Source: Rodentolepis nana (lineage: Eukaryota > Platyhelminthes > Cestoda > Cyclophyllidea > Hymenolepididae). From it: 64,000 bases of DNA. Shown piece after piece: positions 1 through 63,798 of the stretch. Numbering within the stretch: the first letter of the stretch is position 1; the number at the start of each line of letters is the position of its first letter. A program made the position numbers and the translations under genes. The DNA is taken from assembly GCA_900617975.1 (NCBI GenBank), contig UZAE01012020.1, positions 7,279-71,278 on the forward strand. Reading direction: 5' to 3'. Under the pieces are notes generated by a model. The model saw only the letters and a program-made list of their open reading frames with translations. It was not told where the DNA came from and ran no database searches.

Positions 1-198
1 GTCAACAAGCTCATTGCCTTTAATGGCACAGCGACCAGGAATCCATTGTAGAACCCCTGTTTTGTTTTTCTCTCTCAGCAGCTGATAGAGTTTTCTACAT
101 TCCTTTATCTCAGCTGTTTTGGGTGGCTCTCTGTTTCCAATTGAGCTTGTTGCTTTGGTGAATTTCGTATCCAGGCAAAATAATTGGCATATTGCTAT

Positions 199-229
199 CC
201 TAATGGTCTCTAATGGATCCTAATGGATC
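199..229 (+). repeat. three tandem 10-bp units inside LINE copy 1
   Basis: The unit CTAATGGATC is repeated about three times (the first unit is CTAATGGTCT). LINE copy 2 has a non-repetitive sequence at the equivalent place (about 26436-26470), so this is a local expansion that arose after insertion or in this copy's source. Confidence 0.6.
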
Positions 230-621
230 TATTGTGTTCCGCTGCTGCGTAGAAAGAGAAGAGTTCAGAAAAGACACCTGCACCAATGTTTGCTTGGTTT
301 TCTATGTATAACCCATCATTGAAGACTTGGAGCCATTGATCTCCAGGATAGTTGACATTGATTGTCTCAAGGGCCAGTGAGCGAATTTGTTCTGGAGGGA
401 TGTTTGATTTCCTGAAGAAGTCAAGCAGTTGGGTGCATCACACTACATCAGTGTCCGCTAATGGGTTCATGGGTAGAGAGAGGCTTTTTGGTTTGTCATC
501 GATTTATAATTCTTTCTTCAGTTCTATGGCTTTCAGTATTAGACCAGATTGCATTTTCAGATGTCTTATTCTATTCTCATAGGTGCTGAAGAACTTATCC
601 ATGGGAATGCGCAGTAGCTTC

Positions 622-969
622 TCATACAGGATTAAGGCCTTTTCTTTGATAAGGGAACATATTGTGATGCTTCCTGTAACTAGGAGCATTGCCCCAATGG
701 GTGCTGATTTTATCCCTCCAGTAGTTAGTCCTAATGCTTCGTTGTGTGCCTTCTCGAGTGGTTTGAGTCAGCTCTGTGGGTGTAATGAGTGGCTCACAGC
801 AATACAACATTATTGGCTGAATAAACATCTTGTAAGTGATGTTAAGAGTTGAGCGTGCACAGCCCCATACGCTACCAGCAAGACGCTTCAGTACATTCAG
901 TCTATTAGAGACCCGTTCTGCTATTTTAGTAATGTGACTTTTCCACATTAGCTTTGTGTCAAACGTCAT
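622..969 (-). pseudogene. LINE reverse transcriptase C-terminal fragment
   Basis: This is the longest open piece of LINE copy 1. It starts with MTFDTKLMWKSHITK, followed by ERVSNRLNVLKRLAGSVWG and then a hydrophobic IQPIMLYCCEP stretch. This order (leucine-rich helix, 'LK.LaGs.WGa', 'Y.s.I.pil.Yg.') is the thumb and connector that follow the reverse transcriptase palm in arthropod jockey-like and I-like proteins. After about 715 the frame drifts to unrelated residues, while a neighbouring frame (689-504) carries on the family-like linker. A frameshift is therefore the simplest reading. There is no YADD motif; that part of the element is missing. Confidence 0.65.
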
Positions 970-1190: not shown

Positions 1191-2456
1191 GAATTCTGTT
1201 TTTGCTGTATTTTTTTGAAAAGAATTATCGAAAAAAAGTTTTTGGCTGTATTTCTTAAAGTCTCCACTAATTTATCGACATGAGATTGCAAAGTGTTATT
1301 CGGTTCTCTAAAGTTCTTCCATAGGAAGCGAACAGTATACAAGTATTTCGCATTAAAACCTTTATTTTAATTTTTATTAATTATTTCTTGAATTGGCAGT
1401 TTCTTCCAAAATTTAAGAGGAAATTTTGAGATTATCTGTATTTAAGAAATATATACTAGCTCAGATTATCAAAATTCTGTGAAGAATTTGGTAAATTTTT
1501 GAAGAGTTTCCTCTTCCCTATCACATATATGAATGGACGCAATTGCCCACAATGATTAATTTTAATTTGTTTGAAATTTCAGTTCATATCTTGATTTTAT
1601 TTGCTTGAATATTTAACCTATAATTTATCCAACATTGTAATACTCTTAAAATTCCAATATTAGCAGAATCTATTAACTCTTAAGCAATTACCAGATCTAA
1701 TCACTAAACACACTTCGTTCTCCTTTTTTCATCAGAAAGTGAGAAAAGTTTTGCTTCTGTGAGATTTCGCAAGAGATAAAATGTGCTTTAATTAGATCTG
1801 CTTAGAGAATTAGGCAAAATTCTTTTCGCTAAATTATTCTGGTCTTTTAATTAGGTCATTTCTCAACTAACTTTAATTTTCGATTCGATAAGCTAACAAA
1901 TTACTGATTGTCTTCATTAATTCGTTTATTTTATCATAATTAATAATGTTTACTTCTAAAATTTAAACGAAGTTTGTTTCTTCTCACGTCCACAGAGTTC
2001 TTGCAGCTTTTCACGAGTGCTTATTTGCAAACAATTTTTACTTTCTATTGCCATTTTTTGCATATTCAATTTTATGTTGACCAATTGTTAAATAGTATTT
2101 TGGGAAAGTAGCGTATGTAGAATTAACCAATACTTCAATCAGAGCTTTTCGTACTAATGAAGATATGATATTTGATGAACATTTGGGAAAAATGATAAAC
2201 ATCATTTAGAATGTCATTTGATATATATAATGAAAAAAAGTATTTTGTGAAATTTGGTTTTTTTGTTAAACCGTATTTACCTTGTGACTCGCGCTTATTT
2301 GATCTGTATCGTCTTAAAGGAAAACTAATTTCCAACAGATCGGACATTTTAATATCTATTGAAGGGCTTTTATTTTTTTAAATAAGATTTTAGTTTGTTG
2401 CTTTGCACAAATTTTAATATTGAATTAAAATTAAAATCATAGAATTTTTTAGACTT
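1191..2456. other. AT-rich intergenic sequence
   Basis: No coding region, RNA gene or recognisable repeat seen. There are short homopolymer runs only. The open frame at 2135-2347 (minus) has no protein-like composition and no flanking signals. Confidence 0.6.
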
Positions 2457-2780
2457 CATTTATTTATTTCAAATAGCAAGCCTTTTGACAGTTACCATTA
2501 GCCCTTCAGGTGACTTCGGGCTTCACAAAGAGGAGGAGGAACATCAAAATGACAAAAAGTCAAGAGGGGGGACAGAAGAGTGATTCACAGTTGTGAAAGA
2601 GACAGGCAGACACAAAGGCAGAGAAATGGTAAGATGAGTGCTGTGACAGTGATCGAATATGGCATACAGTTGGGTCATGGTTGTTTGAAGTCAGAAATCA
2701 ATTGCCGATTAATGGACTTTTTTTCCGTATGAGTATGCATTGCCCAGGGTACACCTCGTGGAAGTAAGTCTATCTCGCAA
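2457..2780 (-). mobile_element. SINE-like element, copy 1
   Basis: A full-length but diverged member of the main interspersed family in this window. On the plus strand it begins with the reversed tail (catttatttatttcaaat), then the conserved 'cattagcccttcaggtgac' block, a purine-rich middle (the reversed pyrimidine tract), 'actttttttccgtatgagta', and the reversed head with GAAGTAAGTCTATC. Length is about 324 bp. A clear target-site duplication is not visible, which fits an older insertion. Confidence 0.85.
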
Positions 2781-4947
2781 CAAAAACGTTCAAAATAAAT
2801 GCCTTCATGCAAAATAATAGGACATTTAAGGTTTGATGTTCTGAATCCAAATTAAAAATTTTTAACTTTATTTCAATTCACCAAATTGGTATATAAATGA
2901 AACTAGGGATCATTATTTTCCAGAATGCAGTTCATGTATGTTGCCAATTTTACTGTCAATTCTTTCTATTCATGCAATCAGTATTTTATGCTCCGCTTAT
3001 GTTTTGATGTAAGCCCTGCCTTTAACCTAGGCTTAACTTAGCATAAAGCCTATTTGCGCTTGACTGATCAGAAATTATTCCACCAAGGATCTTAAATGTT
3101 GCTTAACACTTTTTTGCTTCATCAATGTCATCATCAATAATTGATGTGCAGAATCTGAAATTTCTAAAGCTCATTAAACATTTGTTTTATAGCCACTGAA
3201 TTTCAATGATTTTCTGTAACATATAGCTTTGGTTTTGGAAGAAAAATATGTAATAAAAATATGGCATATTCCATTTGTCCTCACACATTTGATCCCATCA
3301 TCCAATCGTCGTAAAACATAAATTTTCTAATAAAAAAATTAAATGGCTGCCATTGTAAAATATACACAATCTTAAGTAAACCGCGAATGACGTCATTTGA
3401 ATGCTCATTAATGAATAAAAAATCATTGTAAGATTAAATTATTGATTAAATTGTTTGAAATTCCTTTTTTGTTATAATCAGCCTAGTTTTAGCAATTTTG
3501 GTTTTCCTGAGCATTATCTTTTCCAAATAAAGTTGTTTGTAGAATTTCGACAGTTTAAAAATATGTAGGCTTAGCCCTAGCGAAATACAAGATATTAGTA
3601 TATATGTTTAACTTGTTTAGGCACCTTAAAATCTCAAAGCAATTAATGTGAATTTTAGTAAATTACGTATACTTGACTTTAGATTTCATTTTACTGTTCA
3701 TCACTTAGCTTATATGTTGATCTTTCACTAATGCAAATGCACTAATGATTCGCAATTTCATATAGGAAATAATAAAGCTCGTGAACTTATTATTTTATTG
3801 AAGAAATAGAAGCGGATTCGATCTGTTACTGGTTTTGAGAATTTTTAAGTAGATTCATTGAAGCTTTTTAAAAATAAATTGTACTCTTTGCTCTGTATAA
3901 TAAAGTTGACGCGCATTGAAATGTTAAGTTATCGATTCAAGAATGACATTTTTTTGTCGACCGAACTATTTTATAGAAATATTTAATGTGGACTTTATTT
4001 TTTATTAAATTCGCCTTTCTACTTTGAGAATATAAAATGTTCATAAATTAGCAAATTTATATTTAGCACTTTAAATTACTAATTGTGCTTGCTTAAATTT
4101 GTATGTTTGATTAATAGTCTGAATTTCATAGAGAAAAATTTCCAAAAATTTTGATTTACGATTTTAAAATTTACATTAAATTTAGACTTTGCGTGAATGA
4201 TGGATACTTCTTCCAACACAGATCAAATTAATAATTTATAGAGCGAAAAATTATTTCCTAAATTAGTATATATATGTACTTATATATTTGGGTTATTAAA
4301 ATTTATACATTGTTTCCTGTCTGACTCGGGCTGATTTTACTGCATTGTAGGAAAAAATCCATTTCAAAGATTGTTGATTTCTTTTATGAAGTTGTACATG
4401 CTTTATAAAACTTCTAAATGAATGGCACAGGATGCTATTCTACCTTTCAGACCTATTATTGGACTTTAATTTAACGTCAAGGAAAATGCGAAAATTACGG
4501 ATCGCCGTCTAAATTATTAACCGGTTGACTTTTGCAGTTTGTTCAAACTTAAGAGCCAAATAGTGGAACATATCTATGACTTAAATTGATATTAATATAT
4601 CCGTAACGCTATCAAAGCACATAGTTTTGAACGAAAATACTTCTTTTTGAACTGAATTCAAGTAACTTTAGTCGTCTAATAACAAATTAATGAGCTTTCT
4701 AATCATTTTAGGATTTCATTGGATTTCAATTTATAGCGATACATAATATTCATTTTATTTGCTGGAAATGCAAAACAATTTACAAACATCCTAAATCGGT
4801 TGATTGAATGTGTTGGTTAGGTAACTAGAATGAAATTTATAATTTCATTTCATTTAGAAAAATGCAGAATCCATTTTTATATGAGCTTGAAATTTATTAA
4901 AAAGATAAACTTGAAATTTTGGTAAACATATTTTATGCCTCTATTTA
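2781..4947. other. AT-rich intergenic sequence
   Basis: No gene, RNA or named repeat recognised. Composition is uniformly AT-rich. Confidence 0.55.
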
Positions 4948-5274
4948 GGGGTGCGGGATAGACTTACCTCCACGTGGTGCACCTTGGACAACGTATACTC
5001 ATACGGCTAAATAGTCTATTAACCGGCAGTTGACTTCTGACTTCAAACTACCATAACCCCACTGGATGCCATATTCTACCACTTCCACAGTAATCATCCT
5101 ACCTTTTATCTGCCTTTGTGTCTGTATCTTTTACAACTGTAAACCACTCTTCAGTTCACCCTCCCCTCTCGACTTTCTGTCTGCTTTGATGTTCCTTCCC
5201 CCTGTGAAGACCGAGATCAGCTAAAGGGCTAATGATAGCTATTAAAACGCCTGCCATTTGAAATAAATAAATGT
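4948..5274 (+). mobile_element. SINE-like element, copy 2, with target duplication
   Basis: The head (ggggtgcgggatagactta), the CCACGTGG block, the middle 'ccggcagttgacttctgac', a pyrimidine-rich stretch and the terminal 'aaacgcctgccatttga' plus (AAAT)n-like tail are all present. The direct repeat CTCTATTTA flanks the element at 4939-4947 and 5275-5283. This marks both ends and shows insertion by target-primed reverse transcription rather than DNA transposition. Confidence 0.9.
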
Positions 5275-12682: not shown

Positions 12683-13114
12683 TGGGTGTGCGATAGTCTT
12701 ACCTCCGCGTGGTGCACCTTGGGCAATGTATACTCATGCGGCAAAAAATTTATTAACCGACAGTTGACTTGTCACTTCAAACTACCATCACCCCACTGTA
12801 TGTCATATTCGTCTACTTCCACTTCAAACTACCATCACCCCACTGTATGTCATATTCGAAACTTCAAACTACCATCACCCCACTGTATGTCATATTCGAC
12901 ATCCTTCAAACTACCATCACCCCACTGTATGTCATATTCGACTGCCTCTACAGTACTTACCTTTTTTCTACCTTTTCTACCTTTGCCTTTGAGATACTCT
13001 TCTGCTCCCCCACTCTCGATTTATTCACTTTAATGTTCCTCCTCCCCTTTGTGAAGTCTGAAGTCAACGAAAGGGCTAATGATAACCATCAAAACGCTTG
13101 CCATTTGATATAAC
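12683..13114 (+). mobile_element. SINE-like element, copy 3, internally expanded
   Basis: Head (ggtgtgcgatagtcttacct), middle and 3' block (aaaacgcttgccatttgata) are all family-like, but the element is about 432 bp instead of about 325 because a 38-bp piece of the body is present four times (12774-12940). The tail is degenerate (gatataact). A weak flanking repeat GAAAAAT is present on each side. The open frames across this copy come from the repeats and are not genes. Confidence 0.85.
12774..12940 (+). repeat. four copies of a 38-bp SINE segment with 2-9 bp spacers
   Basis: Units at 12774-12811, 12821-12858, 12861-12898 and 12903-12940 are virtually identical (start ACTTCAAACTACCATCACCC, end GTCATATTCG). 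Spacers are 9, 2 and 4 bases, so the periods are 47, 40 and 42. The first spacer (TCTACTTCC) resembles the start of the normal downstream SINE sequence, so the duplications look like repeated slippage with imprecise joins. Confidence 0.9.
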
Positions 13115-16100
13115 TAACCTTTTGAAAAATAATTGAATTGAACTGCATTTTCTGATTTTATATTTATTATTTCAATTTTCCCAAATTAATGGAATCAAGG
13201 TTATTTTGATTATTCGTCCTGTGATCTTGTGTAAGCTCATATTTTTAAAAAAGGAAAATCAAAGAGTTTTTGCAACTTATCGAACCCTTCAACTTCAGTC
13301 TGGAAATCTAATTATCTAAGTGCATTAATCTTCATGGACAACAGTTTACATTCTTTCCTTAATAAAAAAATAAAAATATTTTTGCCCTCTCAACATTTTC
13401 ATTCTTTTAGATGATAACATTTTCTCTCGTTTGAAATTATTTTAAAATTTTATTTTAATACATAAATAAGCATATATATTTGACATCTTTATCAACAATT
13501 TTTTAACCATAAACTGATATTTTTGGAAATAGCCTACCAATTTGACGGAAATTTCTGGAAAATTGTTTACATCACTTCATCCAGATCTTGAATCATTAAT
13601 GTCGGGCAAGTATTGGTTGGTTTTCTGTATTAAAATTGAAAATATCTGAAATTTCAAAAGTGGGCATGTTATCCTTCTCACTTTAACACTATGTAATTAT
13701 TATTTGAACTAACCTTTCTTTATATTTTTAAATTAATTGATTAGTAGCAGAACAAATAAATAAATCACACTTAAAATTATTTTACCAAAATTGTTGGTAT
13801 TTTGGTGGTGTTTCATCGGTGGAATTCTGATGTTATCTGTTTTAGTGAAAGGCTGACATAAATATGGGAAAGGTAGGACCGGCAGATTTTAAAATCATAA
13901 ATTAATTTATATTAATGCTGCCAATATTAGTTTTTTATTAATCCTTCAGAATTACTGAATAATTTTTATTTACACTGCTTTTTACCAAAGTAAATGAAAA
14001 TAAGTTCAAACGTTAGAAATATGTGGATACATCTTAATTAAAATTTTAAGATTTTATTTCAAGACTTAAGCAATACTTTTACATCTATTTGCTGCTTATA
14101 TGTAATAAGCACGGTTAGAGTGTTACTGACGATTTGGCGCTGCCTGAAAAACATCAGACATATTGTCTGCGTAATATAGGGAGAAGCGGTATATTTGGTT
14201 TTTTACGAATGTTATCAGTGATTACCATCTTCTGATTTTTAATAATGCACAATGCATTTGCAAATACTTTTTAAAACGCATAAAAAGCCATTATTTATTT
14301 TCAATTAAAAATATAATTAGTTATCGCTAGATGCGTAATACAAATTCATGCGTGAATAAAAGATAAGTATTAAATATAAATTAATGAGTGACCAAATCTT
14401 CATTGTTAATAATTATATGTTAATTTACAACACATTTATTTGTTTAATGTCCAATATGTTTCATACATTGAACAGGATTTTTTACCAATTTAGGAGAATG
14501 GAAATGTGAAAAAGGACACCTTCCGAAAATTTGTAAATCATCACAAATTTAGAATATTTATTTAGTATCTAGATAAGCTTTTTATTACAAAAACATAATA
14601 TTTACTTTCATGATAAATTAATATTATGATAAAAACAGAAATAAAGATGTTTTAAGCAGAATCTTGTGAATAGAACTGAATAATAGTCGACATCTTATAT
14701 TTAATTATTTTAATAAAAGAAATGCAATTATAATTCAAATAAACATTCAACATTAACATTTGAGACAATTTTACATGTGTGACAAGTAGTTATGCTTTTA
14801 GATTTGTTCAGAATAATGCCATAGGGGTTGACATTATGTCGTGATTCCTCTTCTTACTTAACTAAAGGTAAATGTAAATTTTAAAACTAATTTGTTTAAT
14901 CGTTTAAGGTTAATATGGTAGTGAATGGGAAGTGAAACATTATGAATTTTATATTTTTTAATTTAAGAAAAGCTATTCTTGATAATTTAATGCTTTTACT
15001 GAAAAGTAAGCCAAATGATTCAAAAGCGAATTTAAGATTTAGTCTACTGCAGTGCATATTTATATAAATTTCTTCAGATTTTTTGGATCTCTAACGTGAT
15101 TTTAAAATTTTCACTTTGTAATTAATGGGAAATTTTGATGTAAACTACGGTAATGCTTTTCATTTTTAACAAGGAAAGTTATTTTTGACAAACGGAGTAT
15201 CTTTCTGAATCGAAAACTTAACAAATACTTACTTCAATTCACATTAATCCGTTTGATTATTCGTATTCCCAAAACGGGTTTTTAAATGTGATTAAAAGAT
15301 TTTGTTATGACAAATATTGTAATTTTCAAAAATATTAGTAATTTTAAATGCTGTATAAAAAAAAATCAACATACTTTGAACGTTTTTTCATAAATCCTTC
15401 ATGTTATAAAATTTAAAGTTTTAATTTAATTTAAATGAGAAGACTGCTTCATTTTAATGATTGATCGTAATGCATGTTATATTATTATGTTAATTATTAA
15501 AATCATTTCTTTACGTTTTCATATTGCAATATTTTGTTCAAAATAATTGAAAGTGAGAACAAATACAAACATAAGCTAAAATAAGTTAGGTTGAAGATAT
15601 TATATTACTTATGTTTTCATTTTGTATTATTAAATTAGATTATAATCAAACGCATTTTAATATAATATTTGAAGGGCAAGTGGTAATGCCATGTAACTAT
15701 TAAATTTTTACTTTAAATTTATTATTCAGCTCTTTGGAAAAACATATTTAATAGAGTCCATATTACCATGATATTTCGAAATAGAATCCAATATGTTATT
15801 CTCGTTAGAGTTGATTTTGTATCATTGCTACCTTGATGTAAATCAAATGTCTATAATTAAATGACTCGAAATACATAATGAAAAAATAAAAAAGGCACAT
15901 TTTTCTTACATTCTCATAATACTAGATATATTTCTTTTCCCCATTATTTCAAGGATATTAATTTTGTAGTCTTGCAGGTGGTTTAATAAGCTTCATATTT
16001 CAATTGTTTTTGGTTTTATGTATTTTAAATTATTTATGTAGTTAATATGTGCTCTTAGAGATTTTCCTCATATTATTGATATGCACTGAATTTAAGCCCA

Positions 16101-24649: not shown

Positions 24650-24938
24650 CCCATGGCAACGTATACTCATGCGGTGGAAAAGTCTATAAACCTGCAGTTG
24701 ACTACTAACTTTAAACTACAATGACCCCACTGTATGCTGCATTCGATCAAAACACGGTACTCACGCTACCATTTCCCTACTTTTGCGTCTACCTCACTAT
24801 TTGCTTCTGTAAATCACTTTTTGTTCCCTCTCTCGTCCTTTTCTTGCTTTGTTTTCTCTCCGCTTCTCTGTGAAGCCTGATGTCAGCTAAAGGACTAATG
24901 ATAATTATTAAAACGCCTGTCATTTAAAATGAATAAAC
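24650..24938 (+). mobile_element. SINE-like element, copy 4, 5'-truncated
   Basis: Starts within the family at 'ggcaacgtatactcatgcgg', continues through the 'cctgcagttgactactaac' middle, the pyrimidine tract and the 'aaacgcctgtcatttaaaat' end with a short tail. The first 45-50 bases of the head are missing, as expected of incomplete reverse transcription. Confidence 0.8.
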
Positions 24939-25805: not shown

Positions 25806-26478
25806 AAGTTTTTTTTCAAATGTCATGCTTTATGATATTTATCATTAGCCCTTAAAATTTGATTTCAGCTTTTCCCTTGGGTGGGCGTACATATATAGCC
25901 GTTGATTATTAGCAGTTCATTAACTGTCCACTTGCTTCCCAATATCTCTGGCTTTCCGTACTTGTATTCCCAATCAGTGAAGGTATTTTGCCAGGCAATC
26001 GTGTCCGGTACGTAGTCTAAACTCAGCAACGGCTTCGATTCTTCGCCAGTCGGGTATGTTGGAGAGTGCCACTGTCCACTGTTTCTTCTTTGTTCGAGCT
26101 TTAAGTTCGCTGCGCCATGAGGTCTGGAATTCTCTCCTGATTAAGTCCTTCATTGTGTGGAAAGACATCGGCCGTTCTATGCCTTGCAAAATCGTTGTCC
26201 CCTTCTCAGCAAGTGTGCCAGCAAGCTCACTGCCTTTAATGCCACAGTGACCAGGAATCCATTGTAGGACCACTGTTTTATTTTTCTCTCAGCAGTCCAA
26301 AGAGTTTTCTACATTCATTTATCTCAGCTGTTTTGGGTGGCTCTCTGTTTCCAATTGAGATTTTTGCTGACTGTGAGTCCGAAAGTATCACCGCTTTGGT
26401 GAATTTTGCATCCAGGCAACATAATTAGCTTAGTGTTATCCTAATGACCGCTATTTCGCCTTCGAAATCAGATCTATT
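25806..26478 (-). mobile_element. 5'-truncated LINE, copy 2, with RNase H and 3' end
   Basis: On the minus strand this runs from inside the RNase H domain (26478) through the C-terminus to a 3' untranslated tail ending in a run of A (T-run at 25810-25817 on the plus strand). Bases 26221-26478 match LINE copy 1 (1-240) closely, which fixes the family. The last 38 bases of the body (25816-25853) match the 3' end of the SINE-like family without gaps. The element is truncated at its 5' end, and no target duplication was identified. Confidence 0.8.
25974..26470 (-). pseudogene. LINE RNase H domain fragment
   Basis: Minus-strand reading gives, in order, FEGEIAVI (position of the catalytic Glu), AVILSDSQSAKISIGN (catalytic Asp in SDSQ), then VLQWIPGHCGIKGSELAGTL. 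This is the familiar order of RNase H in I-like and R1-like elements. In the last motif the expected Asp (…ELADxLA…) is Gly, a single base change (GAC to GGC on the coding strand). Stops break the first part and the open piece is 26273-25974. The following LRTGHDCLAKYLH is the typical linker toward the C-terminal end. Confidence 0.75.
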
Positions 26479-26572
26479 GTGTCCGAAGAAATCGAAGTTA
26501 ATTCAATTGAATTTCATTCTTGTGATATTAAGTACACTTACGCTTAATGTCATCTTATCGCATCAAATCGAG

Positions 26573-28802: not shown

Positions 28803-31259
28803 GCTCTAAATATTTTTAAAAGAACTTTACTTTTTTAATTGTTTTGACCCATTTCAATATAAATGACGCACGCCGTTTTATCACATGATGAATATGGACT
28901 TTAAAGCACGTGCGTTGAAGCGTGCGTGAAAGATTATCATATAGAATGGTGCTTCAAAACTAATGGACATATTATTTATAAAAACTGTCTCAGAGGCTAA
29001 TAGAACGGTAATATAATTCTACTACATTGATTATTTATTTATTCAATAAATAAAGTTGAGGAAAGCAATGAGAACGGATTTAATTTAAAAGAATCGAAAT
29101 GATAGTTATGACTCGTTAAAGAAAAAAAAATAATTTACATTTCATTAACGGAGAGAAATAACGCATCTTTAAATTTTAAATTCAAAGCTAATTAACTAAT
29201 CTGCAGGAAATATTTCAAAAGTTTTGTTTCCTTTATCTTGTTACTAGCCAAGTACATTTAATAAGTGCATAAAATCAAAATTTTCTTTCAAGTCAAAGCA
29301 ATTGATTAAAAACCGATCAATGGTAATTAACACTAGATTTAAAATTCCTCTTGATCGATTTATGATTTTTAAGACTTTTAAATGTTTATTGAAAAAAGGA
29401 AATTACAAGAATGGATAATTGTATCCCGAAAAGTGATCTTTGATTCTATATAAACTTTGTTGGTAAATTAAAGAAACTCGATAGATATCTTCCGTAAAAG
29501 CGCGTCAACTTATTCGAAAAAAATTGTAAAATAAGTATATTCTTTTTTGGAAAAATAGCGTTTAAAACATAGTTGTAACATTTTAGTGAGAATGATGTAA
29601 AAATGCAAGAGAGAATTTGAGCATGAATTCCCCACCACTTTTAAGTTCCCGAATTATAGTAAGTTTTATATCAGGCATAAAAGTGTTTAAATAATCGTGA
29701 ATTTTTAAGTATTTGAACATTGAACAAAAGGAATGTTGTAAGTAAAAGGCCTGACAATGAATTTTGAAAAAATGAAGTCTTTAATATTACTTCGTGACAT
29801 TTCATGAAATTTGGCATTTTCAAGTTAACGCATTCTTAAATTGATAACAATAAATGCCTTAAAATAGAAGAAAATGTTGTCAAGCACATTCAAGTGCAAA
29901 AAAATTATTATTTGTGTCCACAAAGAAACATTACCTCAACTAAATCTTTTAAAACCTAATTTGCTTTTCACATCTTTTTTTGAATATGCAAATGTTTCTT
30001 TTTGCATCCAATATATTTCATTCAAATGCCAGTTCGTGTTGTCAAAAAACCCTTTTGCTTAAAAATACCCTGTTAGAATCTTTATTCCTTTGTTCCTTCC
30101 AGATATCACGATTTTGATATTCTGCCGGTTGGAGCTAATTTATTTATTACCTAAATACGGCATTTTGGCAATACTCTGCATGATATTCTTATATAAAATA
30201 AGATAAAAATTGTTACTATATCGAATTAAATGTTTTTACATTTTATCGTGCATTTTTAGTGCTTAAGAGGTAGTGCTAGTTCTCAGGAACACTACTTCAA
30301 ATTCTTTCATAATTTATGTACCTCACATGTTCACCTCTTTCAACCAATGTTTATCATTTCATTCTCTTGAAGTCCTATTCACCCACTCCTTTACCTTCTT
30401 TAAGCTATTTATTAGAGGCATTTCACTATTTTCGTAAACCAAAATAAAAATTATTCTTTAATGAAAACGAAAATTCCATATTATTCTATGTATTTCGAAT
30501 AGTTGTGTTCTTTTATTCAATAAATACGCAGTAATCTATATACCCTTTTGGATGACTAGGATGACACACAAGAAAAATGCCACTCAATGTGTTTAATTTC
30601 TCAGCTTTATGGAACTAATCCTTTTTACATTAATTATCACTCCATTTTAAAGCTTTTAAAGCCCAGTTAATGTGGATTACCCACAATCATAATGACAGCC
30701 ATTAAACTTCCACCCCAAAAGAGCGATAAAATCAGAATTATATATATATATAAAGCTGTTAAAGGGACATCATATTTCCTCCCCCAGTTCCGGAAATAGT
30801 TGTTGTTATTTATAACTGTTTTAAGAGCTAACGTTTACGTTTAAGTTCAATTATGGGACTAGACATTGAATTATGAGGACGTTAATAGAATTTATTAAAA
30901 TGATTTGCTTTCATTAACCACAGTTTAATTAAAATAAAGTACGGAATCTTTCCAATTTTGCGTACCAGTGCGCAACGGCATTGATTCATTACATTTAAAT
31001 ACTTGTTTCAATGTCGACAGTAGTATTTATTTAAAGAATTCACATTTAAAGAAACAGGAACGTTATCCACTAAATTAGGTGTATTTAAGAAAGAATACTA
31101 ACTGCAATGTGCAATAATGAGTAAACAATTAAATGGTTATCTCTGTTTAAAGAACCAAAGTGATATATGCATTTTTTAAATGATCCAGAAGCATATAGAA
31201 CACAGAAATGCAATTTTCTTATTTAATAATCACAGAAAAAAATGAAGAAGATAATAATA
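28803..31259. other. AT-rich intergenic sequence
   Basis: Nothing recognised apart from a short (AT)n run at about 30740-30752. Open frame 29874-30062 is unsupported. Confidence 0.5.
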
Positions 31260-32558
31260 TTGGGTAGGCAACTAAGTCATTGCCGTTTTTGTTGACAGAT
31301 TCACTCTATACTTTCTTTTGTTTTGTTAACGTGGCCAGAGCATCTAACCTATATTTTTTTCTTACTGTATGGGCTTCTAGGTTAATTAGTAAAAAAATTT
31401 TTTTGTTTAGTTCTTTAGTTTTGTTTTTATCCCAATTTAAAAATGAAAGAACAGGACGTGCACTTCCGACACATTTTATTGTATTACTTCCGAAAAGGCA
31501 AGAACGCATCGCAAGCACAAAAGAAGTTATGTGCCGTATGTGGAGATGAAGCCTTAAAAGAAAGGCAGTGTCGAAATTGGTTTGAAAGATTTCGTTCGTT
31601 CGATTTTTCACTGAAAAATTCACAACGATCTGGCCGCCCAGTCGAAGTGGATGAAACCCATATCAAGGCCATTATCGATTCAAATCGTCACAGCACAACA
31701 CGAGATATTGCAGAGAGGCTCAATGTGTCGCATACATGCATTGAAAAAAATTAAGAACCCTTGGTTATGTCAAGAAACTTGATTTATGCATCCCTCACCA
31801 GTTAAAGGAAATTCGTTTGACGCAACGGATTAGCATCTGTGATTCGCCGCTACTGAAACGCAATGAGAATGAGAATGATCCATTTCCGAGGAAGAACCTA
31901 GTTACTGGCGACGAAAAGTGGATAGTTTATAAGAATGTTACTCGCAAGAGATCATGGGTGAAGCAAGATCAACCAGCCCAAACAGTATCAAAAGCAGAGA
32001 TTCAACAAAAAAAGATTATGCTGTCAGTCTGGTGGGATCACAAAGGAATTTTGTATTTTGGACTCATGCCGCAGAACCAAACAATAAATTTAAATGTGTA
32101 TGTTGAAGAACTCGAAAAACTGAAGGATGCAATTGAAGATAAGCGGCCGGCATTATCAAATCGGAAGGGTGTTGTTTTCCATCATGATAACGCAAGGCCC
32201 CCCCCATATCTTTGGTTACTCGGCAAAAATTATTGGAACTGGGTTGGGATGTTTTGTCACACCCACCATATAGCCCTCACCTTGCGCCTTCGGATTACCA
32301 TTTGTTTCGTTCCATGCAAAACTCTTTAAATGGTAAAATTTTTAACAACGCGGATGATGTCGGATCACACCTAATTCAGTTTTTTAATAGCAAAGACCAG
32401 ACATTTTACGAACGGGGAATTTATACTCTGCCAGAACGATGGAAAAAGGTCATCGACAAGAACGGCCAATATCTAATTGAATAAAGTTATATATTTAAAC
32501 AAAAATTTCGAAGTTGCCTTCTTATTTGAAATCGGCAATGACTTAGTTGCCAACCTAA
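31260..32558 (+). mobile_element. mariner transposon, copy A (full length, 1,299 bp)
   Basis: The terminal inverted repeats start TTGGGTAGGCAACTAAGTCA at 31260 and, on the other strand, TTAGGTTGGCAACTAAGTCA from 32558; they match over about 28 bases. The element is flanked by the TA dinucleotide expected of mariner (31258-31259 and 32559-32560). Length, ends and the transposase place it in the mariner mellifera-like group (DD34D). It carries the reading frame but with at least two frameshifts, so it is not autonomous. Confidence 0.95.
31443..32484 (+). pseudogene. mariner transposase, frameshifted (copy A)
   Basis: Starts MKEQDVHFRHILLYYFRKGK and carries the paired N-terminal helix-turn-helix DNA-binding region (through about residue 104, with RSGRPVEVDE, the GRP linker). 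It then stops at 31754. In a second frame (31817-32329) it resumes with TGDEKWIVYK, holding the first catalytic Asp, and VVFHHDNARP, holding the second. A run of eight C at 32199-32206 shifts the frame again. The third frame (32212-32484) holds SPHLAPSDYHLF, with the third Asp of the D,D34D triad, and ends QYLIE. A 6-base duplication gives NENEND near 31866-31878. Catalytic residues are present, but no single frame joins them to the DNA-binding part. Confidence 0.9.
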
Positions 32559-32560
32559 TA

Positions 32561-33497
32561 GTTATGTCAAGGCAAAACGTCATTAACTGTGCTTAAGTGT
32601 CAGATGCCATTCGGACCTAGTCAAAGTTTTTCATCATAGCGAGAATCGTAACGCCTAATGCCATGGGTGCACTTAAGACAGTAACGATCGTTTATTTGAA
32701 TTTAATTGATTTAAAACCACCCATAGACCAAATAGGTTTGCAGAAATCATCCACTAAGAAATAAGCTTCTTCGGTTAGTAAAGGGTCTGCGTTTCTGAGA
32801 TATTATCTTTGCCGATGTGATTCTACCACACATTCATTTACAAAGCTTAGATGGCAATGCGTGTCTATGCCGACTAATTTCCTCGTCAGCACATCATTTT
32901 TCTCAAACCATGTTTTAGAAAAGCAAAGTTTTTATTTCTGTTTTGAACTCTCCATCTAAATTATACCCCTTTCCCACCAAAAAAAACACAATTTCCCATA
33001 AGGGTCTAACCCAGCTGTTTGTGTGAGAAACTTTAATAATTCCTAGTTACAGATGCTGAGAACGCATTGAAAGTCATCGCCATTTTTTGCGGAAATTTCC
33101 AAAGATTAAGCCAATATTATTTTCTATAAATTTGGGGTTTGATTTAGCGGGAGTACTTTTTTCCGCGGCACTTTAACATTCACTTATCGCCAGCTGTACC
33201 GATCTGGTATCGCCAGCTGCCTCGTGGATCACCTCATTTCTCATTTTACAACATCATAAGTTGGGCTTTAATCCTTTTCAAGGGAGTTGAGATAAGTAAA
33301 TGCCTTCATTCCATATATCCGATATTTATGAACTTGTAGCTATGGGTGCTCCGAAACTGAATTCTTTGAAATTCATATTATTTATTTTATATACTCCATT
33401 TGAATGACTTGTATAATTATAATTGTAATGGTAATAGTAAAAATAAAAAAAAACAAGCCCATCCGTGTAGGGTTGAAATTTGAGGGGAGAGCCAAGT
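32561..33497. other. intergenic sequence, slightly GC-richer
   Basis: No gene recognised. A 12-bp direct repeat TATCGCCAGCTG lies at 33185-33196 and 33208-33219. The frame at 33559-33326 (minus) is partly the reversed SINE head and is not a gene. Confidence 0.5.
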
Positions 33498-33964
33498 GGG
33501 TGTGCGATAGACTTACCTCCACGTGGTGCACCCTGGAAATATGCCTTCACTATCAACATCTTATTTGGAAGCGGAGGGGTGTGTGCGATAGACTTACCTC
33601 CACGTGGTGCACCCTGGACAGCTGTGCGATAGACTTACCTCCACGTGGTGTACCCTGGGCAATGTATTCCTCTATTAACTGGCAGTTGACTTCTCCCTAT
33701 ACGGCAAAAAAGTCTATAAACCGGCAGTTGACTTCTGATTTCAAACTAAAATGGCCCAACTGTATGTCATATTCTACCACTTCCATAGTACTCATCTCAC
33801 CTTTTCTCCGCCTTTGTGTTTCTTACATCTGTGAATCATCTCTTTGGTTACCCACCTTTCGATTTTCAGTTACTTTAATGTTCCTTCTTCTCACATTGGA
33901 GTCCGAAGTCAGCAAAAAGGCTAATGATATCTATCAAAACGCCTGCCATTTGATATAAATAAAT
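33498..33964 (+). mobile_element. SINE-like element, copy 5, with triplicated head
   Basis: The 5' head of the family occurs three times: 33498-33536, 33579-33616 and 33623-33660. The first is followed by 42 bases unrelated to the family. The 'ccggcagttgacttct' middle is also duplicated (near 33675-33695 and 33721-33736). The rest runs normally to 'gcctgccatttgata' and the (AAAT)n tail. Overall length is 467 bp instead of about 325. No clear target duplication found. Confidence 0.85.
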
Positions 33965-36900
33965 ATTAATTTGCATTTCCTTAGAAACAGACCTTTTGCA
34001 CAATTGAAAACAAATATTCGGCAAACTATTAAATCGATATTTGGGAATAGCGCTAACAACTACAACCAAATACTCATCATCTACAACTCAGCATCTGACA
34101 TGGGTGATTACATGAAGAAATAAAATTTAAATTATTATTTATTTCATAGATGAATTAATTAAAAATATAGACCTCCAATATATGCTGTAGAGCTTTTTAA
34201 AATGTTTCACTTAAATGAGAAAATTGCAAGAGATACCTGTTGATTACTTGTTCCAGTCAGAAAGATGAAATTAAATGGCGTATGTGATTTTTGTTTACTG
34301 ATGGAAGGTCACTAGCATTTGGAACTTTGGTTTCAACAGTTTTTGATAAGTTATAGATAAATTGTCATCCACTGGCTCTGAAAACATGGGGTAAATTTTC
34401 ACCTTTACAAGATGTTTCCAAGCAAAATGAAATGCAAATTTAGTTTTTGCTTTTAATTTATGCAAATCATATGTAAAAAAGCTATAGTAGAATTTAGATT
34501 ACCTTTTAAGTCCAAATATAAATGTAAATTATTTTCGACAATTTTGATCAACCTAATTTTTTCCCTTATTTGCATAAATTTAAAAATTGGAATTATCAAT
34601 GAGTATTTTTTAAAGTCCTCTAAGTATCATATGAATTTGTAAACACAATATCATATAATTTAATCTTAGCTATGGTTTAATACTATTTCTAATTCAATTG
34701 CATGTTTGATCTAACGTTCGTATGTGAAGTCACGTTTTTCATTAAAGCTATAGCAAAGACATTCTTCTTTAATGAACTGACAGGAAGTAGGCTCCGTCTA
34801 AATTAATATGACTTTGAAAGACAATGAGCATTTTAATTCGATTCTTATTTCCACATGAAATTTCAACAATGACATAAATGTAGACAAAGTTGCGATTCAA
34901 AATAAACTTATTATCTAATCAACACTGATGATAATAAAAATTTCGTATTGTATAATACTTTTGTACTTTATTTCGTAATGCACAGTTGAAATACAAGAAG
35001 AATATGTGAAGTAAAATGTAAAAATAAGATCATTTATCAAAAATCAATGGGCGCATATATTCCTAATATGAGGTTAATATGATTCTTGCCATTCAGACAG
35101 AAATTACAAGTGCAAACTATTATTATTATTTCTCTAATTAGATTTTATTTGTCTAGTCAAATAGAAATCAGATGAAGATTTTTGTTGGAGTGTTTTATTG
35201 GATATCCTTGTTTAAAAATATAAAATTGGTTGCCCAATGCTATTTTAAACATACTGAAACACTGTTGAGCCTGTGAATAAAATAAACAGCGGAGGATTAG
35301 ATGGAAATTTCACATAGTTTGTTTAATTTTCAATTCCACTGTAAAATGAATATTTTTGCCATTAAAAATATTTATTATTAAACCAATCAATTTTGAAATT
35401 TATATTATATTCAGCATATTACACATAAGACCAAAATATATTTAAAAAAACAAGATTCTACCTTTCTTTATTTGGTTCAAACTAAATTGCTACGAGACTT
35501 TAATAAAAATAAAGCCTTTCGCTTAAAAGTAGACACCATGTATCTATATTTATGAAATAAAATATAATATATAGGGAAAATCTTTGTTAGAGGAAAAAAA
35601 TATTGGTTAAATGCAGAATCGATTGGCAAATTTTTTAACCTTCTTATCCGTGTGTGTACACAGCTTTACTAGACAAAATCTATTATAGAGTAATTATTTA
35701 TCACATCAATCCCCCTTCCCCACACACCTTTATCAGCGTAAATGCTCAATATTGAACATGATTGATTTCACCGAAGATAATTAAATGAAAGCATTTGGAG
35801 AAATCAAAGCTAGTTTATTTCATCTGCCAAAATGAAATAAAGAAATATATGGTTCATTAAAAGGATTGAAGCCACCTTAGACGAACCACGAAATTATATT
35901 AAGTTGAAAGGAAGGCTTATATCAATGTACTAATGTTTCGAAATAACATAATCAATGAATTTCAGTAGGTGTCGATGTTTAAGAAGTTTCATGCAAGTTT
36001 GTTTGCCTAAGGTGAAGAATTCGCTGCATGTTTGGCCATTTCTGTCACAAGGTTTTCCCGCATGAACTTATTTATTTCATACTAGAAGTTAAGCGATGAG
36101 CCCACAATTTGGTAATAATTTTTTTAGTTCAGCGTGGGAAAGAATATGGCTGCATAAAAGTAAATGACATTTTCATTTATCGAAAACAATGGTACATATT
36201 CTTGTTATTTGCTAACACTTTTGTGAGAATTCGAGTGTACTACCCAAATGAAGCGTGCATGTCTTCTTGTCAACAAAATTTGAATTTCCCAACATTATTT
36301 TTATGCAATTTTCAAAAATCCACTATCGGTCTTCTCCACTTAAAGTTGAATGATTGGGAAAACTGTTAAGTTTGTAGAAATATATAGAAATATATTTTGT
36401 TATAGAATAAATAAAAATAAGGATTGTTGGCATATTGACGATACCGAACACTTAATTTTTAAAAATATATTTGGTTTGTGTATTATCCATAAAAAATTTA
36501 TTGCTCTTATCAACAACGTGTAGTTTCTTCATTATCTTGGTATCGCTATTTTGAAATTAAAAGTAAAATATTTTCATGACGAAAAAATAGAAATGGGGTT
36601 CAAATTGGAATATATCAAATAAGGTTTTATTTATTATTTTATATTATATTTGAAAGTATTTAAGTAGATTAAAAATATGAATAAAAATTGAGTTCATTAT
36701 TAATGAATCAACAATTGGAAAAGCATTTAACATGAAAAAATAGAAGATATTTGCGTTGTGCTGAAATGTAGTTGCGATTGATAAAAAAGAGGCGAACGAC
36801 AAATGCAACCATTTTTAACAAATTCTGAAGTAAGTTGAACAATAGTTTGAAAGTAATGTTTAAAGTAAAGTTTGTAGTTTGTCTTAAAACGATACAATAT

Positions 36901-37568: not shown

Positions 37569-37866
37569 GGGGTATGCGATAGACTTATCTCCATCCTGGG
37601 CAAAAGGGTTTATAAACAGGCAGTTGAATTCTCACCTCAAACTACAATGGCCTCACTGTATGCCATATTCGACCACTTCCACAACACTAATCTCTCTTTT
37701 TTCTCTGCCTTTGTGTCCATCTGTCTCTTTACATCTGTGAAACACTCTTCTTTTTCCCTTTTGAATTTTTTCATTCCGATGTCTCTCCTTCCCTCATTGA
37801 AGCCCGAAGTCAGCTAAATGGCTCATGCTAATTAGCAAAACGCCTGCCATTTGATATAAATAAATG
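37569..37866 (+). mobile_element. SINE-like element, copy 6
   Basis: Head (gggtatgcgatagacttatc) is present but the CACGTGGTGCAC block and the following 'acgtatactcatgcgg' are deleted. The rest is family-like through 'aaaacgcctgccatttgata' and an (AAAT)n tail. CCATCAA before and CTATCAA after the element may be a worn target duplication. Confidence 0.85.
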
Positions 37867-41489: not shown

Positions 41490-41585
41490 TAATTTGTACT
41501 CTCTCTTTCACACATGTATGTGAGAAAATTGGGGCTTATGATAAATATTATAAGGCCTGCCGTTTAAAATATTAATAATAATTAT
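41490..41585 (+). mobile_element. degenerate SINE-like 3' tail relic
   Basis: The sequence around 41530-41585 (ggggcttatgataaatatta, then aaggcctgccgtttaaaat and AAT-rich tail) aligns with the last 50 bases of the SINE family (gggctaatgataactatcaa, gcctgccatttgatataaat). The upstream pyrimidine-rich bases (ctctctttcacacatg) may be the remains of the tract. It is the oldest-looking copy in the window. Confidence 0.6.
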
Positions 41586-43695: not shown

Positions 43696-43940
43696 TTATT
43701 TATTTCAATTAATAGATGTTTGGACAGTTATCACAGGACTTCACAGAGGGGAGGAACGTCAAAGTGAGAAAAGTCGAGAGGGGGAACTGAAGGATGATTC
43801 ACGGATGCAAGAGACAGACAGAGTGGAGACATGGCAGTTCGAAGTCAGAAGTCAACTCTCGGTTTATTGACTTTTTTGTCGTATGAGTATACGTTGCCCA
43901 GGATGCATCACGTCAAAATAAGTCTATTGCACACCCCGAC
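43696..43940 (-). mobile_element. SINE-like element, copy 7, internally deleted
   Basis: Tail (reversed AAAT run) at 43694-43710, then the purine-rich reversed tract, 'gttcgaagtcagaagtcaac', 'gtatgagtatacgttgccca' and a worn head. It is about 245 bp: roughly 65-70 bases between the pyrimidine tract and the middle are missing. No target duplication seen. Confidence 0.8.
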
Positions 43941-44443: not shown

Positions 44444-44508
44444 AACGAGAAAGGTTTACTTTCCTTTAATCTGCCAAATAATCTTAAAGCTGACTTATGA
44501 TCATTCAG

Positions 44509-44824
44509 GTGTGTGAGATAGACTTACCTTAACGTGGTGCACTCAGGGTAACGTATATAAATGCGATAAAAATCCATAACTCGGTAGTTGACTTCAAACT
44601 AACATGACCCTACTCCATGTCATATTCGATTGTTTCCACGGAACTAACCTTGCTCTTTTCTCTACGTTGATGTCTATCGTCTTTACATCTATGAATCTTT
44701 CTTTTGTTCCTCATCTCTTCAATTTTTGTGACTTTGATGTTTCTACCATTGTGTTTCCAGAGGTCAACAAAAGGGCTAATGATGGCTATCGTAAAGCCTG
44801 CCATTAGATATAAATAAATAAATG
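44509..44824 (+). mobile_element. SINE-like element, copy 8
   Basis: Full-length but worn. Head gtgtgtgagatagacttacc, E-box replaced by AACGTGG, middle 'actcggtagttgacttcaaa', pyrimidine tract, and end 'aaagcctgccattagatata' with a (AAAT)3 tail. No good target duplication is visible, so this is an older copy. Head-to-head with copy 7 at a distance of 568 bases. Confidence 0.85.
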
Positions 44825-49192: not shown

Positions 49193-49194
49193 TA

Positions 49195-50489: not shown

Positions 50490-50491
50490 TA

Positions 50492-52116: not shown

Positions 52117-52447
52117 ATTATTTTTTTATTTATTTCAAATAACAGGCATTTTGAAAGTTATCATTAGCTCTTTAGCTGACTTCGGGCTTTATAGGGAGGA
52201 TGAGGAACATCAAAGTGAATAAAAGACGAGACGGAGTCAGAATAATGATTCACAGATTTAAAGGAGACAGATAGAAACAAATGCACAGAATAGGTAAGAT
52301 AAGTACTGTGGAAGGGGTCGAATATGCTATACAATGGGGTCATGGTACTTTGAAGTCAGAAGGCAACTGCCGGTTAATGGACTTTATTGCTATGTGGGTA
52401 TGCTTTGCTCAGGGTGCTCTACGTGGAGGTAAGTCTATCACACATTC
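52117..52447 (-). mobile_element. SINE-like element, copy 9, with 10-bp target duplication
   Basis: CGCAATATTG occurs perfectly on both sides (52107-52116 and 52448-52457), so the ends are certain. Plus-strand order: reversed tail (tttttttatttatttcaaat), 'cattagctctttagctgact', purine-rich tract, 'tttgaagtcagaaggcaact', 'gtgggtatgctttgctcagg', and GTGGAGGTAAGTCTATCACA, the reversed head. Confidence 0.93.
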
Positions 52448-52834
52448 CGCAATATTGTTGATAAAAAGCATCAATCAGGAATTTATTAATCCGTGATATT
52501 TTTGGTAATTTAATCAAGCATTATTTACAAAATTCATTTTCCATAGAATACTGATCCAATTATTTCAATGTCCTCGTTAATAGACTTTTTTGAATAGTGG
52601 CTTTAGAGAAAAACCTCAAATGAAAATAAGCATAAAGTCATAATTGAAAAAGTGTAGGAAAACACTAAAAATTGCCTTCTCGATCAATCACGCATGAAGC
52701 AAGCTCCAAAATACCTTTATCAAAAATATTTGATACCAAGAAACGGAACTTGAAAGGTTTTTGAATTAACTATTACTAGTCACAGAACAAACATGAATGC
52801 TTTTTTCAACTTTTGAGTTAATATATTTGTAAAA
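52448..52834. other. spacer between SINE copies 9 and 10
   Basis: AT-rich, no recognisable feature apart from the target duplications at its edges. Confidence 0.5.
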
Positions 52835-53157
52835 TGTGGGGTGTGCGATAGACTTACCTCCACGTGGTGCACCCTGGGCAACGTATACTCATGCGGCAAA
52901 AAGTCTATTAACCGGCAGTTGACTTCTGACTACAAACTACCATCACCCCACTGTATGTCATTTACGACCACTTCCATAGTATTCAATTTACCTTTTTCTC
53001 TATCTCTGTGTCTGTCTCTTTTACATATTTAAACCACTCTTCCGTTCCTCCCTATCGACTTTTTTCACTTTGATGTTTCTCCTCACCTCTATGAAGTCCG
53101 TAGTCTACTAAAGGGCTAATGATACCTATCAAAACGCCTGCCATTTGATATAAATAA
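52835..53157 (+). mobile_element. SINE-like element, copy 10, with 12-bp target duplication
   Basis: One of the best-preserved copies: GGGTGTGCGATAGACTTACC, CACGTGGTGCACCCTGGGCA, then 'attaaccggcagttgacttc', pyrimidine tract and 'aaaacgcctgccatttgata' with an AAAT tail. ATATTTGTAAAA flanks both sides (52823-52834 and 53158-53169). Length is about 323 bp. TGGTGCACCCTGG, about 30 bases in, loosely fits a pol III A box. A B-box candidate (GTTGACTTC) further on is weak, so a tRNA origin is not shown. Confidence 0.93.
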
Positions 53158-53169
53158 ATATTTGTAAAA

Positions 53170-63448: not shown

Positions 63449-63461
63449 AATTGTTGTTCTC

Positions 63462-63785
63462 ATGGGGTGTGCGATAGACTTACCTCCACGTGGTGCACTC
63501 TGGACAACGTATATTCATACGGCAAAAAAGTCTATTAACCGGCAGTTGACTTCTCACTTCAAATTACCATCACCCCACTGTTTGTCATAGTTGACTACTT
63601 TCACAGTACTCACCCCGCCTTTATTCTACCTTTTCTACCTTCGTCTCTGAAACACTCTTCTGTTTCCTCCCCCCCCTTCTCGACGTTTTATTCACTTTGA
63701 TGTCCCTTCCCCTCTGCGAAGCCTGAAGTCAACTAAAGGGCTAATGATAACCATCAAAACGCCTGCCATTTGATATAAATAAATA
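63462..63785 (+). mobile_element. SINE-like element, copy 11, with 13-bp target duplication
   Basis: AATTGTTGTTCTC flanks it perfectly (63449-63461 and 63786-63798), the longest duplication in the window. Head ggggtgtgcgatagacttac, CCACGTGG, 'attaaccggcagttgacttc', pyrimidine tract with a C8 run near 63669-63676, 'aaaacgcctgccatttgata' and (AAAT)3 tail. This is probably the youngest copy. Confidence 0.95.
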
Positions 63786-63798
63786 AATTGTTGTTCTC

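What the first reader, a model, noticed from the sequence alone, without database searches (positions are those of the whole stretch)
25806..25862. SINE-like family shares its 3' end with the LINE: likely mobilising partner
The 38 bases at 25816-25853 lie at the 3' end of LINE copy 2. They align without any gap to the terminal block of the SINE-like family (33 of 38 identical by my count, including a shared run AAGGGCTAATGATA on the element strand). SINEs commonly borrow the 3' tail of the LINE whose reverse transcriptase copies them, so this would identify the partner of an abundant repeat family directly from one locus.
Basis: partly seen in the sequence, partly recalled or inferred. Interest (0 to 1): 0.8.

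Follow-up and report, generated by a model that had tools for sequence, protein, structure and literature searches.

The report
Ribozyme-headed short parasite of a LINE
An abundant short repeat in what looks like a tapeworm genome carries both the front end (a predicted self-cutting RNA) and the back end of a larger jumping gene, so it is most likely a stripped-down hitchhiker of that gene rather than an ordinary SINE that borrowed only its tail.

Summary
Observation confirmed. 25816-25853 matches the SINE-like tail ungapped at 33 of 38; shuffles reach 22. The proposed refutation fails: a LINE query without the block fetched 30 copies; 28 carry it whole, 20 of these followed by AAAT or TAA repeats. 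Of the other two, one is interrupted and one meets an assembly gap.

The "SINE" also begins with the LINE's first ~97-109 bases. These look like an HDV-like self-cleaving ribozyme: Rfam RF02682, 44.0 bits in one window copy, 44.2-45.8 in 3 of 20 other loci, cut-off 44. Target-site duplications of LINE and short element abut base 1, at or two bases from the predicted cut. No tRNA, 5S or 7SL head was found. Gap-free, internally deleted LINE copies of 363, 1245 and 1947 bp exist.

So the family is most likely a LINE-derived, ribozyme-headed non-autonomous element, like R2 SIDEs in Drosophila and NARTc/RIME in trypanosomes. The genome is probably Rodentolepis nana. The ribozyme core occurs 11,465 times in 107 Mb. 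Self-cleavage and mobilisation are inferred. New member of a known kind.

The parts
25806..26484 (-). LINE copy 2: 5'-truncated copy (RNase H, C-terminal region, 3' UTR, tail); lacks about 80 bases of C-terminal coding sequence near 25965 that other copies have
25816..25853 (-). shared 3' block (the finding); 33 of 38 identical to the short family's tail; a predicted stem-loop lies in it
25809..25816 (-). A-run tail of LINE copy 2 (eight A on the element strand)
1..956 (-). LINE copy 1; its 3' end lies beyond the left edge of the window
63464..63788 (+). full-length copy of the short family, the one scanned with Rfam
63464..63539 (+). HDV-like ribozyme at the 5' end of that copy (Rfam RF02682 at 63466-63535, 44.0 bits, cut-off 44)
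63720..63788 (+). LINE-like 3' tail of that copy (start approximate)
63449..63463 (+). upstream target-site duplication of that copy; directly abuts base 1
63786..63798 (+). downstream target-site duplication of that copy
2455..2783 (-). copy of the short family (5' end extrapolated from nt 5 or 10)
4948..5272 (+). copy of the short family, with target-site duplication
12683..13117 (+). copy of the short family with an internal tandem expansion
24655..24937 (+). copy of the short family; similarity begins at about nt 40
33497..33965 (+). copy of the short family preceded by two extra partial ribozyme heads
37569..37865 (+). copy of the short family with a deletion inside the ribozyme (start read by eye)
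43734..43937 (-). copy of the short family, damaged
44508..44823 (+). copy of the short family
52120..52448 (-). copy of the short family
52838..53160 (+). copy of the short family, with target-site duplication

Best explanation
The repeat family is a short non-autonomous derivative of this LINE (or of a close subfamily), built like a SIDE (short internally deleted element). It has about 100 bases of the LINE's 5' end, which are predicted to fold as an HDV-like ribozyme; an unrelated, faster-changing middle of about 130-150 bases; and the LINE's last ~60-65 bases with a predicted stem-loop and an AAAT or TAA tail. Inferred working: a longer transcript that contains a copy cuts itself at the copy's 5' end and so frees an RNA with an exact 5' end. 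The LINE's endonuclease and reverse transcriptase recognise the 3' stem-loop and tail and copy the RNA into a nicked target. Because the ribozyme is copied too, each new copy can free itself again without its own upstream promoter. Shown here by sequence: the shared ends, the ribozyme match, target-site duplications abutting base 1, internally deleted LINE copies, copy numbers. Inferred: self-cleavage, recognition of the tail, mobilisation in trans.
For: 3' end: 28 of 30 LINE copies fetched without using the block carry it; at family level the tail scores 82-83 against LINE pieces, shuffles at most 28. 5' end: nine of ten fetched LINE 5' regions, with different flanks, start at the same base (the tenth, L086, is N there); the head scores 117 against the LINE 5' piece, shuffles at most 25; similarity runs to nt 97 against L082 and nt 109 against L083. 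Ribozyme: RF02682 at 44.0 bits in the window copy and 45.8, 45.3, 44.2 in 3 of 20 loci scanned at the cut-off of 44; LINE 5' ends of five loci give 30.4-38.0 bits for RF00094 and 32.2-37.1 for RF02682. 25 named pairs form in 91.7% of cells over 62 heads (58 distinct) against 34-51% when slid. The aligned catalytic C is kept in 51 of 62 heads, among them all 12 last rows (11 LINE or LINE-derived heads plus L078, undetermined). Insertion: target-site duplications score >=9 in 22 of 39 full-length short copies against 2 of 312 mispaired controls; in 21 of the 22 they abut base 1, one of these being an uninformative TA repeat. LINE copies L081, L087, L088 have duplications of 14-16 bases (L088 with one mismatch) abutting base 1; 30 mispaired controls reach 5. 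Derivation: N-free internally deleted LINE copies L056 (363 bp), L051 (1245 bp), L082 (1947 bp). Constraint: mean pairwise mismatch 0.155 in the ribozyme and 0.158 in the tail, against 0.231-0.255 in the middle, 40 copies. No tRNA, 5S or 7SL match in the copy scanned, and three internal T runs of 4-6, which would tend to stop pol III (recalled).
Against: Two-sided changes in the named stems are no more frequent than after shuffling (covariation reached by 94 of 500 shuffles). The start of stem P1 is ambiguous by two bases: RF00094 begins it at base 1 in L080, L081 and L088, but RF02682 begins it at base 3 in the window copy, L018, L026 and the LINE heads, and at base 1 only in L029. The base-1 register pairs better (91.4% against 78.6% of P1 cells), yet the base-3 register is the one with a slight excess of two-sided changes over shuffles (3-18 of 500). 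LINE heads stay below the Rfam cut-offs, L056 gave no match at E 0.05, only 3 of 20 loci reach the cut-off, and the whole-window scan at the cut-off listed nothing although the same copy scores 44.0 alone. The middle of the short element matches none of the LINE pieces held, so a plain internal deletion does not explain all of it; a full LINE is not in hand because of assembly gaps. The short tail differs from the young LINE tail at two stem positions and in part resembles more diverged LINE tails.
Confidence: 0.83

Rival explanations
1. A classic SINE: a pol III-transcribed head (tRNA, 5S or 7SL type) fused to a LINE 3' tail.
For: Length about 330 bp, very high copy number, LINE-like tail, target-site duplications, unrelated middle.
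Against: The first ~100 bases are the LINE's own 5' end. In the copy scanned with permissive settings Rfam lists only two HDV-type ribozymes and one weak miRNA match. T runs of 4-6 lie inside the body.
Confidence: 0.07
2. The same design, but the real mobiliser is an older or separate LINE subfamily, and the young LINE fetched here is only its cousin. (Compatible with the best explanation, so the odds overlap.)
For: Tails of some more diverged LINE copies (L056, L074, L076) share GTCAACTAA-like upstream letters with the short family, and L022 shares still more. Most short heads carry A in the L3 loop like L083, L051 and L056, where the young LINE has T. Short copies are more diverged (mean pairwise mismatch 0.155 in the head) than the LINE 5' regions fetched (95.6-99.0% identical).
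Against: The LINE tails and heads seen are all recognisably the same, so one enzyme could serve them. Some short copies are close to the window copy (97%, 95%, 94%), which fits recent activity.
Confidence: 0.35
3. The 5' similarity is real but the ribozyme fold is a relic or coincidence, and the shared segment acts only as a promoter or untranslated leader.
For: No two-sided changes above shuffles in the best-paired register; P1 register ambiguous; LINE heads below the Rfam cut-offs.
Against: The Rfam alignments cover the whole model. All stems, the L3 loop and the catalytic C are present, and the predicted cut lies at, or within two bases of, the element boundary that target-site duplications define independently.
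Confidence: 0.1
4. A SINE tail relic merely lies next to this one LINE copy.
For: None found.
Against: 28 of 30 copies fetched without using the block have it; in the 27 other than the window's own it starts 108-200 bases after the end of the best aligned stretch.
Confidence: 0.01

Closest known systems
R2Dwi_SIDE and other R2 or R2/R1 SIDEs of Drosophila (PMC3414825, passages seen)
   Same: 5' HDV-like ribozyme shared with the autonomous element, LINE-derived 3' end, and in R2Dwi_SIDE a central 197 bp without identity to R2; propagation ascribed to the LINE's target-primed reverse transcription
   Different: Those SIDEs sit in the rRNA genes; this family is found on many contigs, with target-site duplications and thousands of copies, and belongs to a LINE with endonuclease (PF14529), RT and RNase H
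L1Tc/NARTc and ingi/RIME of trypanosomes (PMC4035085, Background section and passages seen)
   Same: LINE with apurinic/apyrimidinic endonuclease, RT and RNase H; 77-nt 5' segment that acts as an HDV-like ribozyme; short partner that keeps the LINE's 5' and 3' ends; abundant
   Different: Animal host here; AAAT/TAA tail; promoter function of the 5' segment not tested here; unrelated middle in the short element
Gecko SINE with MosquI-type I LINEs of Aedes (PMC3747384, Table 1 seen)
   Same: The only protostome SINE/LINE tail pair in that 2013 table; tail shared with an I-type LINE
   Different: Gecko is listed with a tRNA promoter; here the head is LINE-derived
RTESINE1, MAR4, Bov-A2 (PMC3747384, Table 1 seen)
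   Same: Short elements listed with the 5' end and the tail of their LINE
   Different: RTE or Bov-B partners in mammals; that table mentions no ribozyme

Membership tests
SIDE (short internally deleted element of a LINE) | 5' end homologous to the autonomous LINE's 5' end | tested here: met
SIDE (short internally deleted element of a LINE) | 3' end homologous to the LINE's 3' end | tested here: met
SIDE (short internally deleted element of a LINE) | 5' self-cleaving ribozyme | tested here: inconclusive
   Rfam match and pairing present; activity not testable here
SIDE (short internally deleted element of a LINE) | spread by target-primed reverse transcription | tested here: met
   Target-site duplications in 22 of 39 copies against 2 of 312 controls; consistent with, not proof of, the mechanism
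SIDE (short internally deleted element of a LINE) | arose by deletion inside a LINE | tested here: inconclusive
   Deleted LINE copies exist, but the middle of the short family matches no LINE piece held
HDV-like ribozyme | score at or above the curated Rfam cut-off | tested here: met
   RF02682 (cut-off 44): window copy 44.0; L026, L029, L018 of 20 loci. LINE heads below it; whole-window scan listed none
HDV-like ribozyme | stems P1, P1.1, P2, P3, P4, L3 loop and catalytic C | tested here: met
   start of P1 ambiguous by two bases
HDV-like ribozyme | compensatory changes in the stems | tested here: inconclusive
   Not above shuffles with P1 from base 1, slightly above with P1 from base 3; copies decay after insertion, so power is low
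HDV-like ribozyme | self-cleavage | not testable with these tools
   needs an RNA assay
Classic SINE | pol III-type head (tRNA, 5S or 7SL) | tested here: not met
   No such Rfam match in the copy scanned; none at the cut-offs in the window or 20 loci
SINE/LINE tail pair | common 3' sequence with terminal repeats | tested here: met
I/Ingi-type LINE | endonuclease, RT and RNase H in one element | tested here: met
   PF14529, PF00078, PF00075 on separate pieces; colinear order, across single-N gaps
I/Ingi-type LINE | place in a reference RT tree | not tested
   no named clade references at hand

The most novel reading that the evidence does not exclude
A tapeworm genome carries one of the largest sets of predicted self-cleaving ribozymes in an animal (the ranking itself was not tested): more than 11,000 ribozyme cores, most of them presumably at the heads of dispersed SINE-sized elements that make their own 5' ends by HDV-type cleavage instead of pol III transcription, and that may also cut host transcripts into which they have inserted in sense.
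Probability: 0.35. Interest if true: 0.78.

Novelty: new member of a known kind. Interest (0 to 1): 0.62.

Why it matters
It explains an abundant repeat family of a probable tapeworm genome by naming its likely enzyme supplier and how it may make its exact 5' end. It extends the ribozyme-plus-tail design of R2 SIDEs and of L1Tc/NARTc to a flatworm, in dispersed copies numbering thousands. It also gives two short, separable parts (ribozyme, stem-loop tail) whose roles can be tested in a tube, and many decayed copies from which to learn which bases the enzyme and the ribozyme need.

Tried and rejected
tRNA, 5S or 7SL head: no match (ARAGORN found no tRNA in the window). Origin of the middle from the LINE: no score above shuffles against the three LINE pieces used, either strand. 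Covariation as proof of the ribozyme: not above shuffles in the best-paired register, slightly above in the shifted one. A scan of the viral collection for the ribozyme core found nothing. I first read L068 as a mariner insertion in the block; the N at the junction shows an assembly gap. LINE copies with single-N joins inside (L081, L085-L088, L040, L043, L047, L066) or long N runs are not used as evidence of deletion; only the N-free L051, L056 and L082 are. The LINE clade was not assigned. Paper searches (listings and starts of abstracts seen; one search returned no paper) showed no title or abstract on such an element in tapeworms; the library is open-access PMC only.

Full report
Setting. 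The window is G000:C2218:7279-71278 of a 107-Mb assembly in 4701 contigs, GC 30.6%. With the LINE's C-terminal protein as query the best hit is Rodentolepis nana (P0004, 88% over 83% of the query). With the RT piece the two best hits by E-value are an unnamed protein (75% over 79%) and Hymenolepis microstoma (80% over 77%), while three R. nana proteins have the highest identity (93-95% over 54-62%). The genome is therefore most likely R. nana or a near relative, a hymenolepidid tapeworm (taxonomy). This is inferred from a multicopy element, not proven.

The observation. The 38 bases at 25816-25853, read on the minus strand, match the terminal block of the SINE-like consensus at 33 positions without gap; 500 shuffles of the consensus gave 22 at most. 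The block ends a minus-strand LINE copy (25810-26484) with RNase H and C-terminal coding similarity.

I searched the genome with the LINE stretch 25856-26460, which lacks the block, and examined the 30 loci cut out of 40 scored candidates. 28 of 30 carry the whole block, the window's own copy included; L052 carries 22 bases (20 identical) before an interruption and L068 ends in an N. In 20 of the 28 at least two AAAT or TAA units follow at once; 8 have shorter or decayed tails. In 30 further loci taken in contig order by the block alone, 24 have the short family upstream and 6 the LINE, judged by eye. Genome-wide the 24-base block with at most one mismatch occurs 8136 times (reversed control 0); a 35-base version with short-family letters 2614 times and with LINE letters 671 times, at most one mismatch, controls 0.

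The LINE. Separate pieces match an endonuclease family (PF14529), RT (PF00078) and RNase H (PF00075). Ribozyme, endonuclease, C-terminal part and tail lie in order in L081, L087 and L088, each across a single-N gap. An ATG at about nt 105 is in frame with the endonuclease in the copies translated. Copies are ragged at the 5' side.

The unexpected part: the 5' end. Nine of ten fetched LINE 5' regions, with different flanks, begin at the same base; the tenth (L086) is masked there. The short family's consensus matches from that very base: score 117 against shuffles of at most 25, running to nt 97 against L082 and to nt 109 against L083. So the short family has both ends of the LINE. Its middle (nt 101-236) scores no better than shuffles against the three LINE pieces tried.

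What the 5' end is. Rfam's HDV-type models cover it end to end: RF02682 at 44.0 bits in the window copy at 63464 (cut-off 44; E 5e-7 for that stretch), and 45.8, 45.3 and 44.2 in 3 of 20 loci scanned at the cut-off. LINE 5' ends give 32.2-37.1 (RF02682) and 30.4-38.0 (RF00094, cut-off 50) in five loci, which repeats L081 and L088, L051 gives 35.6, L087 30.0 and L056 nothing at E 0.05. All LINE scores are below the cut-offs. The whole-window scan at the cut-off reported none. The first paired base is element base 1 in the RF00094 alignments of L080, L081 and L088 and by coordinates in L029, but base 3 in the RF02682 matches of the window copy, L018, L026 and the LINE heads. Counting pairs on 62 heads, P1 from base 1 pairs in 91.4% of cells and from base 3 in 78.6%. 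With the base-1 register 91.7% of all cells pair, against 34-51% slid, but two-sided changes do not exceed shuffles; with the base-3 register they slightly do (3 to 18 of 500 shuffles reach them). The aligned catalytic C is kept in 51 of 62 heads. The core 35-mer with at most two mismatches occurs 11,465 times, reversed control 0; this includes LINE heads, whose consensus differs at two of these positions. At roughly 330 bases each that would be 3-4% of the assembly (inference; not every head is a full copy).

Insertion marks. Among 39 full-length short copies, 22 have target-site duplications that score 9 or more, against 2 of 312 mispaired controls; in 21 of the 22 the duplication directly abuts base 1. 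One of these, L026, is a TA repeat and uninformative. 17 of 39 copies show no such duplication. LINE copies L081, L087 and L088 have duplications of 14-16 bases (L088 with one mismatch) abutting base 1; 30 mispaired controls reach 5. So the element boundary lies at, or two bases from, the predicted cut in both.

The 3' end. The tail folds into a stem-loop with modest support (young LINE -12.1 kcal/mol, z -2.0; window copy -8.3, z -1.4; short family -10.1, z -1.6; L056 -13.2, z -1.8; L022 -17.4, z -4.1; L072 -9.5, z -0.1 and another fold). Over 126 tails eight of the ten stem pairs form in 85-98% and two in 54-59%, because the short family differs there; over 79 distinct tails 80% of cells pair, against 31-53% slid. 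That the enzyme reads this stem-loop is inferred from LINEs of the stringent type (PMC3747384: section 7, first part of section 21 and passages seen).

Where it came from. N-free internally deleted LINE copies exist: L056 (363 bp: LINE nt 1-253 fused to the last ~125 bases), L051 (1245 bp) and L082 (1947 bp). L051 has a 14-base duplication with one mismatch, L056 a weak one (score 7.5), L082 lies in a TA repeat. In 40 copies of the short family, ribozyme and tail differ less (0.155, 0.158) than the middle (0.231-0.255), as expected if both ends are needed and the middle is not.

Comparison. R2 SIDEs of Drosophila have the same plan, R2Dwi_SIDE even with a 197-bp middle of no identity, and three ribozymes tested there cut in vitro (PMC3414825, passages seen). 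L1Tc/NARTc and ingi/RIME of trypanosomes pair a LINE with the same enzyme set with short elements that share a 77-nt HDV-like ribozyme (PMC4035085, Background and passages seen). A 2013 table of SINE/LINE pairs lists one protostome case, Gecko with I-type LINEs (PMC3747384). The H. [quoted passage not shown] whether such elements are among those is open.

Verdict. Cleavage and mobilisation remain to be shown.

Noticed in passing
31248-32561 (+), 49192-50491 (-), 61957-62984 (+): Three DNA-transposon copies, 90-100% alike over the aligned stretches; the open frame at 31817-32329 matches Transposase_1, PF01359, mariner type by recall. Suggests recent activity.
   Followed up: partly
33497-33700: Two extra partial ribozyme heads (about nt 1-43) stand in tandem before a short-family copy; closely spaced heads also occur on C88 and C115. 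Template jumping or local duplication could explain it.
   Followed up: no
L086:3153-3354; also C36, C53, C59: LINE or short-family tails repeated in tandem at about 40-90 base spacing, as if the 3' end had been copied more than once.
   Followed up: no
12772-12970: A stretch of about 40-47 bases of the short family's middle is repeated four times in tandem in one copy.
   Followed up: no
41527-41574: A lone tail on the plus strand, 29 of 38 identical to the block, of the LINE type by eye.
   Followed up: no
A lead for horizontal transfer, untested.
   Followed up: no
L040, L043, L047, L066, L068, L081, L085-L088: Single N letters mark joins inside LINE copies; they look like assembly gaps and can mimic internal deletions.
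   Followed up: partly
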